Positions 11,413-13,234 of a DNA stretch of 14,715 nt are shown here, one piece after another (position 1 is the first letter of the stretch; every line of letters begins with the position of its first letter). The DNA is taken from the NCBI GenBank assembly GCA_946480965.1, contig CAMLMI010000089.1:1-14715 (forward strand), read 5' to 3'. A model generated the notes under the pieces. That model was not told the DNA's origin. It saw nothing but the letters and a program-made list of their open reading frames with translations, and did not search any database. The DNA comes from an uncultured Verrucomicrobiales bacterium. GTDB lineage: Bacteria > Verrucomicrobiota > Verrucomicrobiae > Limisphaerales > CANJSG01. A program made the translations under genes and the position numbers.

Positions 11413-12099
11413 ATGCAACCGACCACGCTCCTGATCGCCACGCGCAACCGCCACAAGACGGAGGAAATCGCCGCCATTCTCGGCGCGGGCTTCGCCTGCC
11501 TGACGCTCGACGCCGCGCCCGGAGCGCCCACGCCGGTGGAGGATGCGGCCACCTTCGAGGGCAACGCGCTGATCAAGGCGCTCAGCCTCGGCGCATGGCT
11601 CGTTGCCCAGCCCGGCCACGATCTCTGGAAGCGGAACATCTCCGGACGTTTCCTGGCTCTGGCCGATGATTCCGGCCTCGAAGTCGATGCGCTGGACGGC
11701 GCGCCCGGCGTCCATTCCGCCCGCTTCGCCGCCCTCGACACCGGCGCGACCGGCAACAGCCCCGACGCGGCCAACAACGCCAAGCTCATCCGCCTCCTCG
11801 CCTCCGTGCCGCCGGAGAAACGCGCCGCCCGCTTCCGCTGTTGCCTCGCCGTGGTCCCGCTCCGGCCCGGCGCGACCACGGCCGAACTGAAAGCATCCGC
11901 CCGCACCTTCAGCGGTGCCTGCGAAGGCCGCATCCATCCCGAACCCTCGGGCCAAGGCGGCTTCGGCTATGACCCGCTGTTCATTCCCGCCGGCTACGAC
12001 CGCTCGTTCGCCGAACTGGGGGAAGAGGTGAAGAACCGCCTGAGCCATCGCGCCCATGCGCTGGTCGGCTTGCGCGGCCATCTGCTCGAAGTCGGCTGA
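11413..12099 (+). CDS. rdgB: XTP/dITP diphosphatase (RdgB/HAM1 family)
   Basis: 228 residues from the ATG at 11413. The enzyme hydrolyses dITP, ITP and XTP to the monophosphate and pyrophosphate and keeps deaminated purines out of DNA; cytoplasmic. Family motifs in order: L-I-A-T-R-N-R-H-K-T-E-E-I (7-19); T-F-E-G-N-A-L-I-K-A (47-56); A-D-D-S-G-L-E-V-D-A-L-D-G-A-P-G-V-H-S-A-R (84-104, with the Asp pair D85/D86); E-P-S-G-Q-G-G-F-G-Y-D-P-L-F-I-P (177-192); and the closing E-E-V-K-N-R-L-S-H-R-A-H-A-L (204-217). Compared with E. coli RdgB there are about 15 extra residues (roughly 66-81) between the FEGNA and ADDSG motifs, probably a surface loop. No Shine-Dalgarno sequence. Confidence 0.93.
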   Translation: MQPTTLLIATRNRHKTEEIAAILGAGFACLTLDAAPGAPTPVEDAATFEGNALIKALSLGAWLVAQPGHDLWKRNISGRFLALADDSGLEVDALDGAPGVHSARFAALDTGATGNSPDAANNAKLIRLLASVPPEKRAARFRCCLAVVPLRPGATTAELKASARTFSGACEGRIHPEPSGQGGFGYDPLFIPAGYDRSFAELGEEVKNRLSHRAHALVGLRGHLLEVG

Positions 12100-12154
12100 A
12101 TCCCACGCAACCCCTTCCCCGCCCAGCTTCGGGTCCGCCCGGCTCATTCGCGGT

Positions 12155-12182
12155 TTGCCCTCGACGCGGATTCCGGTATCTT
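12155..12182 (+). promoter_or_regulatory. Candidate sigma-70-like promoter for the rnk-like operon
   Basis: TTGCCC (12155-12160) and TATCTT (12177-12182) are separated by 16 bp. This would start transcription near 12189-12190, just ahead of the first base of the structured leader. The match is partial in both boxes, and GC-rich bacteria of this type may use other consensus elements. The agreement of its predicted start with the edge of the folded region raises its plausibility. Confidence 0.4.
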
Positions 12183-12189
12183 CTGCTCC

Positions 12190-12382
12190 AGTGATTGGCA
12201 ACGCGCACAAAACGATGGTGCAACCGGAAAGAGGTTCTTTCCGGGGCGTTTGCCTGTCGTTTAGCCGCCTCTCGGCCTGCCGCCACTTTGGGAGCTAGCC
12301 CTGTCGGCCTCGGCCGATAGCGAGCAGCTCCCCTTCCCCCCAAGCCGTTTCCTGGACGACGCGCCCTGTCGGCGCGACGTCC
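12190..12382 (+). ncRNA. Structured 5' leader (three stacked hairpins) of the rnk-like gene
   Basis: Hairpin 1: CCGGAAAGA (12224-12232) pairs perfectly with TCTTTCCGG (12236-12244) around a 3-nt loop. It is extended by GCAA/TTGC (12220-12223 with 12250-12253) and AAACGA/TCGTTT (12210-12215 with 12257-12262) across internal loops. Hairpin 2: GGGAGCT/AGCTCCC (12290-12296 with 12326-12332) encloses TCGGCC/GGCCGA (12304-12309 with 12312-12317). Hairpin 3: GGACG-a-CGCGCC (12354-12365) pairs with GGCGCG-a-CGTCC (12371-12382) with a CTGTC loop. The 11-mer GCCCTGTCGGC occurs in hairpins 2 and 3 (12298 and 12363). Hairpin 3 ends 33 nt before the rnk-like ATG. There is no credible ORF and no U-tract. 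Could be a cis-regulatory RNA, an attenuator or a processed small RNA. Confidence 0.5.
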
Positions 12383-12415
12383 TCATCCGTTCACACCTAA
12401 ACCCTGTCCAATACC

Positions 12416-12820
12416 ATGAACCCGACTCCCCTCATCGGTCAGCGAGATGAAAGCCGCCTTCGCCGGCTGCTCGCCACCGTTCGCCCCAACAACGCCTCGC
12501 TCCGCGAAAGCCTCGTCCGTCTGGCCGCCGAGCTGGACCGCGCCCGGCTGTTGCCGGACAGCGAGATCCCGCCCGACATCGTCCGCCTCGGATCGACGGT
12601 GGAGCTGGAGGATCTCTCGGACGGCGAGATCCTGACCTACACGCTGGTGCTGCCCAGCGAGGCGGACGCCAGCCTTGGGCGCATTTCGATCCTGGCTCCC
12701 CTGGGCACGGCGATGCTCGGCTACGGGGCGGGAGACGACTTCCGCTGGCCCGTGCCCGGCGGGACGCTTCACGCCCGCATCCGCCGTGTCGGCCTGCACG
12801 AACCCGCACCCATCGCCTGA
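12416..12820 (+). CDS. rnk: Rnk / GreA-GreB C-terminal-domain protein
   Basis: 134 residues. A short helical N-terminus (10-48) lacks the long coiled coil of GreA and precedes a GreA/GreB C-terminal FKBP-like fold (55-127). Its hallmarks are V-R-L-G-S-T-V-E-L-E-D-L (56-67), Y-T-L-V-L-P-S-E-A-D (75-84), G-R-I-S-I-L-A-P-L-G-T-A-M-L-G (88-102) and G-D-D-F-R-W-P-V-P-G-G (106-116). This layout and size match Rnk, an RNA-polymerase-binding protein first named as a regulator of nucleoside diphosphate kinase, which binds near the secondary channel without cleavage activity. The gene follows the structured leader and is only 3 bp ahead of the next ORF. The start is the first ATG after the leader; no Shine-Dalgarno motif. 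Confidence 0.85.
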   Translation: MNPTPLIGQRDESRLRRLLATVRPNNASLRESLVRLAAELDRARLLPDSEIPPDIVRLGSTVELEDLSDGEILTYTLVLPSEADASLGRISILAPLGTAMLGYGAGDDFRWPVPGGTLHARIRRVGLHEPAPIA

Positions 12821-12823
12821 GCC

Positions 12824-13234
12824 ATGACCATGAAGACGCTTGTTCCCACGGACCGTCTGGACCATGTCGCCTGGGCCCGGCGCGTGAACGCGCGCTGGAT
12901 CGTGCGCGGCGGGTTGAACGACTCGGCCACGGCCTACATGAACCACCTGGAACGCATCCACCCCGAGCGCCTGGTGCGGTCCTGTCGCCGCGCCCATCGG
13001 CTCGTGTATTCGATGGAGCCTCTGGAGGACCCCAAGCCGTGGTTCTACGGCGGGCTGTTCAGCCTGGCCACCACGGCCGAAGCCCGGCGCTTCCTCGCGG
13101 AGCATCCGTTCATTTTGGCCACGATCCCGTCGCTGGCCTTCGATCCGGACCTGCCGGAGGTGCTGGTCTCCGCCGCACCGGAAACGGCCCGGAAGATCCA
13201 GCGGTTGAAGAACGCGCTGGCCAGGTTGGCCTGA
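12824..13234 (+). CDS. Small protein of unknown function in the rnk operon
   Basis: 136 residues from the ATG at 12824 (a second ATG at 12830 is equally possible). I do not recognise a family. It has no signal peptide or membrane segment, so it is probably cytoplasmic. It is Arg/His/Trp-rich in the first half (H-V-A-W-A-R-R-V-N-A-R-W, R-S-C-R-R-A-H-R-L) and has a conserved-looking P-W-F-Y-G-G-L-F-S (72-80). The pattern would suit a small nucleic-acid- or RNA-polymerase-associated protein, but that is speculation. It starts 3 bp after the rnk-like stop, so the two are surely cotranscribed and probably functionally linked. Confidence 0.75.
   Translation: MTMKTLVPTDRLDHVAWARRVNARWIVRGGLNDSATAYMNHLERIHPERLVRSCRRAHRLVYSMEPLEDPKPWFYGGLFSLATTAEARRFLAEHPFILATIPSLAFDPDLPEVLVSAAPETARKIQRLKNALARLA

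What the first reader, a model, noticed from the sequence alone, without database searches (positions are those of the whole stretch)
12190..12415. Strongly folded leader upstream of an rnk-like gene
Three hairpins, one with a perfect 9-bp stem and two outer helices, fill the gap between a candidate promoter and the rnk-like start. An 11-mer (GCCCTGTCGGC) recurs in two of them. A leader pseudoknot is known upstream of rnk in Proteobacteria, but I see no sequence match, so this may be an independent RNA regulator of Rnk in another phylum.
Basis: partly seen in the sequence, partly recalled or inferred. Interest (0 to 1): 0.7.

Follow-up and report, generated by a model that had tools for sequence, protein, structure and literature searches.

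The report
Conserved leader peptide before rnk gene
Just upstream of a gene for an Rnk-like protein (a presumed RNA-polymerase-binding factor), this bacterium carries a conserved RNA leader that seems to encode a roughly 35-residue peptide ending at the foot of a conserved hairpin, which would be a previously undescribed switch controlling Rnk.

Summary
The structured leader is real and is more than three hairpins. Related leaders lie upstream of rnk in four other genomes of one Verrucomicrobiota order (rnk identity 51-63%): 4 of 320 genomes searched, the four with the best rnk match. In all five leaders the conserved core reads in frame as R-L-[S/A/I]-A, at residues 26-30 of a uORF of 35-43 codons. 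Its start codon is 6-9 nt after a -10-like hexamer; 4 of 5 have TTGC-N16-TAnnnT. That layout occurs in 1 of 101 other rnk-like upstream regions. The uORF stop lies within hairpin 2 (4 of 5) or directly before it (1 of 5). The hairpin 2 stem shows compensatory changes. Hairpin 1 is not conserved in sequence and hairpin 3 is inconsistent. Rfam has no match. Most likely this is a leaderless leader-peptide attenuator of rnk: a ribosome at the uORF stop decides whether hairpin 2 forms. Described rnk/greA attenuators were found by their terminators; none is seen here. Stalling, ligand and Rho involvement are inferred. I rate it a new variant of a known kind.

The parts
12155..12160 (+). -35-like hexamer TTGCCC
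   Evidence: TTGC + N16 + TAnnnT shared by window, L001, L090, L002; L091 has TTGCCG-N16-TACCAA by eye, weak, no hit
12177..12182 (+). -10-like hexamer TATCTT; predicted transcript start about 12189-12191
   Evidence: start position inferred from the usual spacing, no transcript data
12191..12298 (+). candidate leaderless uORF, 35 codons, GTG start, VIGNAHKTMVQPERGSFRGVCLSFSRLSACRHFGS, stop TAG
   Evidence: start codon 6-9 nt after the -10 in frame with the core in 5 of 5 leaders, 0 of 10 in the other frames; layout in 4 of 5 leaders versus 1 of 101 controls; an ATG at 12215 would give 27 codons
12210..12262 (+). hairpin 1, inside the uORF (9-bp inner stem 12224-12244)
   Evidence: fold of the 5' part: z -3.25 in the window, -1.19, -1.53, -2.42, -2.84 in L001, L090, L002, L091; sequence not conserved
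12266..12277 (+). conserved codons R-L-S-A; Leu codon CTC/TTA/CTT/TTG/CTG in window, L001, L090, L091, L002
12290..12332 (+). hairpin 2 (GGGAGCU...AGCUCCC); the uORF stop 12296-12298 overlaps its 5' arm
   Evidence: z -4.69, -4.78, -4.1, -2.58, -1.86 in window, L001, L090, L002, L091; 97.1% of cells paired and 2 pairs with changes on both sides
12330..12341 (+). C-rich tract at the end of and behind hairpin 2
   Evidence: sequence; from hp2 to the rnk start C 42% and G 24%; C exceeds G in 5 of 5 leaders, only slightly in L090, 26% against 22%
12354..12382 (+). hairpin 3 (GGACGACGCGCCCUGUCGGCGCGACGUCC)
   Evidence: 3' part z -2.95 here, -3.64 L090, -1.87 L091, but 0.36 L001 and -0.15 L002
12416..12820 (+). 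rnk-like gene, 134 aa
   Evidence: PF01272; 3bmb
12824..13234 (+). ORF136, unknown protein next to rnk, probably the same operon
   Evidence: homologue follows rnk also in L090 and L002; no Pfam or NCBIfam match

Best explanation
A cis-acting leader-peptide control element of the rnk(-ORF136) transcript. Transcription from a TTGC-N16-TAnnnT promoter begins at, or within a few bases of, the start codon of a uORF, so the uORF is translated leaderless. Its conserved C-terminal part, R-L-[S/A/I]-A-x-[R/L], is laid down as the ribosome nears the stop codon, which lies within or directly before hairpin 2. A ribosome held there (by the nascent peptide, a ligand or slow termination) would keep hairpin 2 open and cover the start of the C-rich stretch behind it. 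A ribosome that releases would let hairpin 2 form and free that stretch, for instance for Rho. rnk output would thus follow the fate of a ribosome at the end of the uORF, much as tnaCAB follows TnaC. Shown by computation: conservation of the leader with rnk, the uORF layout and frame, and the covarying stem. Inferred: that the uORF is translated, that the ribosome stalls, what is sensed, the use of Rho and the direction of the effect. My confidence is about 0.7 that the uORF is translated and regulatory, and about 0.3 in the TnaC/Rho-type details.
For: A covariance model built from three leaders (R1) found, without being trained on them, matches upstream of rnk on the same strand in L091 (23.4 bits; the only match at E <= 1 in that 6.7-Mb genome, where 12 of 744 candidates were scored) and in L002 (15.4 bits). 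Model R2, which was trained on all five, gave over 320 genomes of the order strong matches (53-76 bits, expected for its own training loci) in the four genomes with the best rnk match and nothing else above 32 bits. Start codon 6-9 nt after the -10 in the core's frame in 5 of 5 leaders, 0 of 10 in the other frames; product of the five shuffle frequencies 4.9e-9, with the -10 (also the poor one of L091) and the distance window chosen after seeing the data. Promoter + spacing + 25-50-codon ORF in 4 of 5 leaders, 1 of 101 other rnk-like upstream regions. Core at residues 26-30 of 35-43-codon uORFs. Five different Leu codons at one site; third codon positions differ most (55 against 40 and 40 pairwise differences). 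hp2 compensatory changes. The coding frames in front of rnk look different from locus to locus by eye, so the leader seems to travel with rnk. The greA/rnk gene family is often attenuated (PMC2965389 passages).
Against: Only five sequences. A column-shuffle coding test on the 12 core codons is not significant (p 0.09-0.12). In L091 and L002 the stop is not at the window's place: it is directly before the hp2 arm in L002 and in the hp2 loop in L091. The L091 -10 is poor (no hit). Two of five covariation measures are not better than shuffles (81 and 329 of 500), and the alignment was fitted to the model. The whole L002 leader is not unusually folded (z -0.75). Masking the stop region in folding hardly changes predicted access of the rnk start (largest change 0.66 to 0.56, L091), so simple start occlusion is not supported. 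No intrinsic terminator found and no rut site tested. No independent homologue of the peptide in the protein collection (1 protein of 66 candidates, L002's own annotated ORF).
Confidence: 0.55

Rival explanations
1. A purely RNA-level cis element: the conserved core and hairpin 2 bind a protein or small molecule, and the open frame is incidental in GC-rich DNA.
For: hp2 covaries; the core is conserved in nucleotides as well as codons (GCC and GGG invariant in the five); the coding test is weak; the stop is not at a fixed place in 2 of 5.
Against: In-frame start at the promoter-defined 5' end in 5 of 5 with 0 of 10 in other frames; Leu codon variation at both synonymous positions.
Confidence: 0.25
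2. The uORF encodes a small functional protein, merely co-transcribed with rnk.
For: The ORF has an ATG/GTG start and its end is conserved; L002's version was annotated as a hypothetical protein (P0119).
Against: The part before R-L-x-A does not align well (mean column identity 36% over the whole, only R, L and A invariant); conservation is confined to the residues next to the stop; the protein search found no homologue other than L002's own ORF.
Confidence: 0.08
3. The leader is a premature-termination or processing product that also acts in trans as a small RNA, as proposed for greA/rnk leaders in Proteobacteria.
For: Precedent in PMC2965389 (passages): short greA transcripts, and an rnk leader region that co-immunoprecipitates with Hfq.
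Against: No intrinsic terminator in 11900-12600; no target or transcript data.
Confidence: 0.07
4. Chance folding of GC-rich intergenic DNA.
For: Raw folding energy is ordinary for this window; the region is GC-rich.
Against: Homologous leaders upstream of rnk in four other genomes, two of them found by a model not trained on them, and covariation.
Confidence: 0.03

Closest known systems
rnk-leaders and greA-leaders of Proteobacteria and Firmicutes (Naville and Gautheret 2010, PMC2965389, passages read; experimental E. coli greA attenuator cited there)
   Same: Cis leaders upstream of the same gene family, proposed to act by attenuation; different lineages use unrelated leaders.
   Different: Those were found by a search for premature terminators and have a clear antiterminator; no leader peptide is described for them in the passages read. 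Here no intrinsic terminator is found, no Rfam family matches, and the conserved part is the end of a uORF plus a hairpin at its stop.
TnaC/tna operon (PMC8429421, passages read)
   Same: Short leader ORF (24 residues there), proposed decision by a ribosome at the uORF stop, region behind the stop that Rho could use.
   Different: No sequence relation seen by eye (not searched); a covarying hairpin begins at the stop; ligand unknown; Rho use untested; uORF apparently leaderless; the target is an rnk-like gene rather than a catabolic operon.
SpeFL (ornithine) leader peptide (mentioned in PMC8429421, passages)
   Same: Arrest at termination on a short uORF of similar length (length recalled).
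   Different: No sequence relation noted (not searched); different gene; sensing not shown here.

Membership tests
Rfam families, including the rnk/greA leader families (their presence in Rfam is recalled) | covariance-model score at or above gathering | tested here: not met
   0 matches in the window; 0 in L001, L002, L090, L091; relaxed search of 12050-12500 gave only Xoo5 (E 0.18) and sR22 (E 2.6), both far below gathering
terminator/antiterminator rnk attenuator | intrinsic terminator before the gene | tested here: not met
   0 terminator-like sites in window 11900-12600; the other four leaders were not scanned with that tool
leader-peptide attenuators | short ORF in the leader, conserved, upstream of the regulated gene | tested here: met
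   5 of 5 leaders have an in-frame uORF; conserved end R-L-x-A; translation itself not tested
leader-peptide attenuators | ribosome position changes an RNA structure that controls the gene | tested here: inconclusive
   the stop lies in the hp2 arm in 3 of 5, in its loop in L091 and directly before it in L002; masking removes hp2 but does not clearly change access to the rnk start
ligand-dependent arrest peptides (TnaC, SpeFL) | ligand-dependent stalling at the stop codon | not testable with these tools
   needs toeprinting or ribosome profiling
TnaC-type control | Rho-dependent termination behind the uORF | not tested
   only base composition seen: C exceeds G from hp2 to rnk in 5 of 5 leaders
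Rnk (regulator of nucleoside diphosphate kinase) | homology to E. coli Rnk, GreA/GreB C-terminal domain, about 135 aa | tested here: met
   3bmb over residues 3-120; PF01272; NCBIfam PRK05753 is the best match but 5 bits under its cut-off

The most novel reading that the evidence does not exclude
A new class of nascent-chain sensor: a leaderless 35-43-residue peptide ending near R-L-S-A-x-R that arrests the ribosome at termination, in response to a metabolite or to the state of translation. A hairpin nucleated at its stop codon converts that into control of Rnk, which would tie translation status to an RNA-polymerase-binding factor in Verrucomicrobiota.
Probability: 0.25. Interest if true: 0.8.

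Novelty: new variant of a known kind. Interest (0 to 1): 0.6.

Why it matters
rnk and greA are reported to have unrelated attenuators in different lineages (PMC2965389, passages); this would add an independent one, in Verrucomicrobiota, that appears to work through a leader peptide rather than a terminator. It offers a compact test case for leaderless uORFs and nascent-peptide control in a phylum where I know of little RNA biology, and for the open question of what signal rnk expression follows.

Tried and rejected
Rfam scans: nothing at gathering; weak hits Xoo5 and sR22 rejected. Single-protein scans of genome contigs and viral contigs found no relatives; the alignment scan gave 80 loci kept of 111 relatives; the viral scan with the alignment gave none. 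A plasmid DNA search gave none. The GGAGCTAGC...GCAGCTCC pattern in viral contigs gave 42 stretches, not more than chance by my own rough estimate, and these were not followed up one by one. Other R1 hits near 20-31 bits across 384 class genomes were treated as noise; 15 of them were read by frame, and L177 sits directly behind a long ORF. R2 hits at 29-32 bits in the order search (L196, L212, L210, L211) were read and rejected. R-L-S-A-like ends near a stop in L018, L048, L184 and L190 were dropped: L018 lies downstream of rnk, in what I judged an overlapping frame of another gene; L048, L184 and L190 lack the promoter-plus-start layout, L048 having an in-frame stop just before the core. Further looser matches (L110, L134) were not followed. 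L096 has a bare GGAGCU/CAGCUCC stem upstream of rnk (10.5 bits); too weak, so not counted. The 11-mer repeat and pairing of the hp2 3' arm with the rnk coding sequence were judged peculiar to this window. Sequestration of the rnk start was not supported. ORF136 was tested as the leader's partner and rejected: in G416, G423, G425 and G065 it occurs without the leader or rnk beside it.

Full report
What is there. The three hairpins, the 9-bp stem and the repeated 11-mer are at the stated places. The gene behind it is rnk-like. Rfam has nothing at gathering in the window or in the four loci that carry related leaders.

Finding relatives. No whole genome is held for the window. An alignment of 24 Rnk proteins (the window's and 23 of the 118 found) brought 80 loci out of genome contigs. 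A covariance model of these three (R1) found two more loci it had not been trained on, both upstream of rnk on the same strand: L091 (23.4 bits; the only match at E <= 1 in a 6.7-Mb genome, where 12 of 744 candidates were scored) and L002 (ADurb.Bin118, 15.4 bits).

Distribution. Searching 320 genomes of the order with the rnk protein gave 14 with E <= 1e-25; the four best are G001, G205, G065 and G002. Model R2, built from all five leaders and therefore bound to match its own four training loci, gave 53-76 bits in exactly those four of the 320 and nothing else above 32 bits. Four further matches at 29-32 bits, one of them a second place in G205, were read and rejected. The other ten rnk-bearing genomes had no R2 match at E <= 0.02, with 14 candidates or fewer scored per genome and strict filters. 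A search of 241 class genomes with R2 gave nothing new above 34 bits. By eye the coding frames in front of rnk differ between loci, so the leader seems to go with rnk. ORF136, next to rnk in the window, L090 and L002, occurs in four genomes away from rnk and without the leader.

A reading frame. In all five leaders the core is in frame with R-L-S-A (window, L001, L090), R-L-A-A (L091) or R-L-I-A (L002). The Leu codon is CTC, TTA, CTT, TTG and CTG in window, L001, L090, L091 and L002. A column-shuffle test on the 12 codons is only suggestive (p 0.09-0.12), though this frame scores best of three and third positions differ most. The stronger evidence is the layout. Four of five leaders have TTGC-N16-TAnnnT, then 6-9 nt, then ATG or GTG opening an uninterrupted frame into the core; for these four, shuffles reach it in 3 to 16 of 5000. 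In L091 the -10 is poor (TACCAA) but an ATG is at the same distance. With the -10 fixed, all five have the start in the core's frame and none in the other two frames; the product of the five shuffle frequencies is 4.9e-9, with the -10s and the distance window chosen after seeing the data. The same layout with any frame of 25-50 codons occurs in 1 of 101 other rnk-like upstream regions, which come from several phyla. The uORFs have 35, 35, 37 (or 38), 36 and 43 codons in window, L001, L090, L002 and L091, and the core begins at residue 26-30. A search of the protein collection with the five frames, lengthened to meet its 40-residue minimum, returned only L002's own ORF, already annotated as a hypothetical protein.

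The RNA structure. Hairpin 2 is the conserved element: z -4.69, -4.78, -4.1, -2.58 and -1.86 in window, L001, L090, L002 and L091. On the model-fitted alignment of the five (A7), 97.1% of cells pair; A12293-U12329 becomes G-C in L091 and L002, U12296-A12326 becomes A-U in L091, one pair is G-U in L002 and one is broken in L091. The covariation score (0.343) is reached by 10 of 500 shuffles and falls to 0.086-0.143 when the partner is slid by one to three columns; the number of pairs with both-side changes (2) is reached by 81 of 500 and the number of pair types by 329 of 500. The 5' part has z -3.25, -1.19, -1.53, -2.42 and -2.84 in the same order as for hairpin 2; the 3' part (hairpin 3) is strong in window and L090, moderate in L091, and not better than shuffles in L001 (0.36) and L002 (-0.15). 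Over the whole leader L002 is ordinary (z -0.75).

How it may work. The uORF stop is in the 5' arm of hairpin 2 in three leaders, directly before the arm in L002 and in the hairpin loop, 12 nt past the window's place, in L091. A ribosome waiting there should exclude hairpin 2; one that leaves lets it form. Folding with that stretch masked removes hairpin 2 but hardly changes the predicted access of the rnk start, and there is no terminator-like site in the window's leader, so neither start occlusion nor intrinsic termination is supported. The stretch from hairpin 2 to rnk has more C than G in all five, in L090 only slightly, so Rho is a possible reader, as for tnaCAB (PMC8429421, passages). 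Stalling, ligand, Rho and direction of control are inference.

Comparison. Naville and Gautheret (PMC2965389, passages) list greA/rnk as a family often controlled by attenuation, with rnk- or greA-leaders in Pseudomonas, enterobacteria, Yersinia and bacilli, found through premature terminators and each with an antiterminator; the main text held does not mention Verrucomicrobia. The main text held of Weinberg et al. 2010 (PMC2864571) does not contain 'rnk'. In the held library one paper, the same PMC2965389, holds any of 'rnk leader', 'rnk-leader', 'rnk 5 UTR' or 'rnk mRNA'; searches of rnk with leader peptide and Rho-dependent gave that paper alone, rnk with pseudoknot, structured RNA and Verrucomicrobia gave none, and RLSA with leader peptide gave none. 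So it works like a leader-peptide attenuator and is not a member of a described rnk-leader family that I could test.

Limits.

Noticed in passing
window 12824-13234 (+): ORF136, next to rnk, belongs to a family of 68 proteins found at E <= 0.001 (its own near-copy included) with no Pfam or NCBIfam match. Its predicted structure is confident and helical (mean pLDDT 90.4), with no PDB fold at E <= 0.001. D-P-K-P-W-F-Y is invariant in the 35 aligned.
   Followed up: partly
L117 and L207: Genomes G001 and G002 carry a second rnk-like gene (44-47% identical to the window's) behind another coding frame and without a leader match in front of it, so one of two paralogues has it.
   Followed up: partly
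window 11413-12099 (+): Ham1/RdgB-type nucleotide pyrophosphatase ends 55 bases before the -35-like hexamer; by eye not next to rnk in the four relatives.
   Followed up: no
L023, L034, L097, L106, L108, L110, L116: In these other loci an rnk-like gene follows closely on the end of an upstream coding frame that looked to me like an aldo/keto reductase, leaving little room for a leader (sequence read; gene name by eye, not searched).
   Followed up: no
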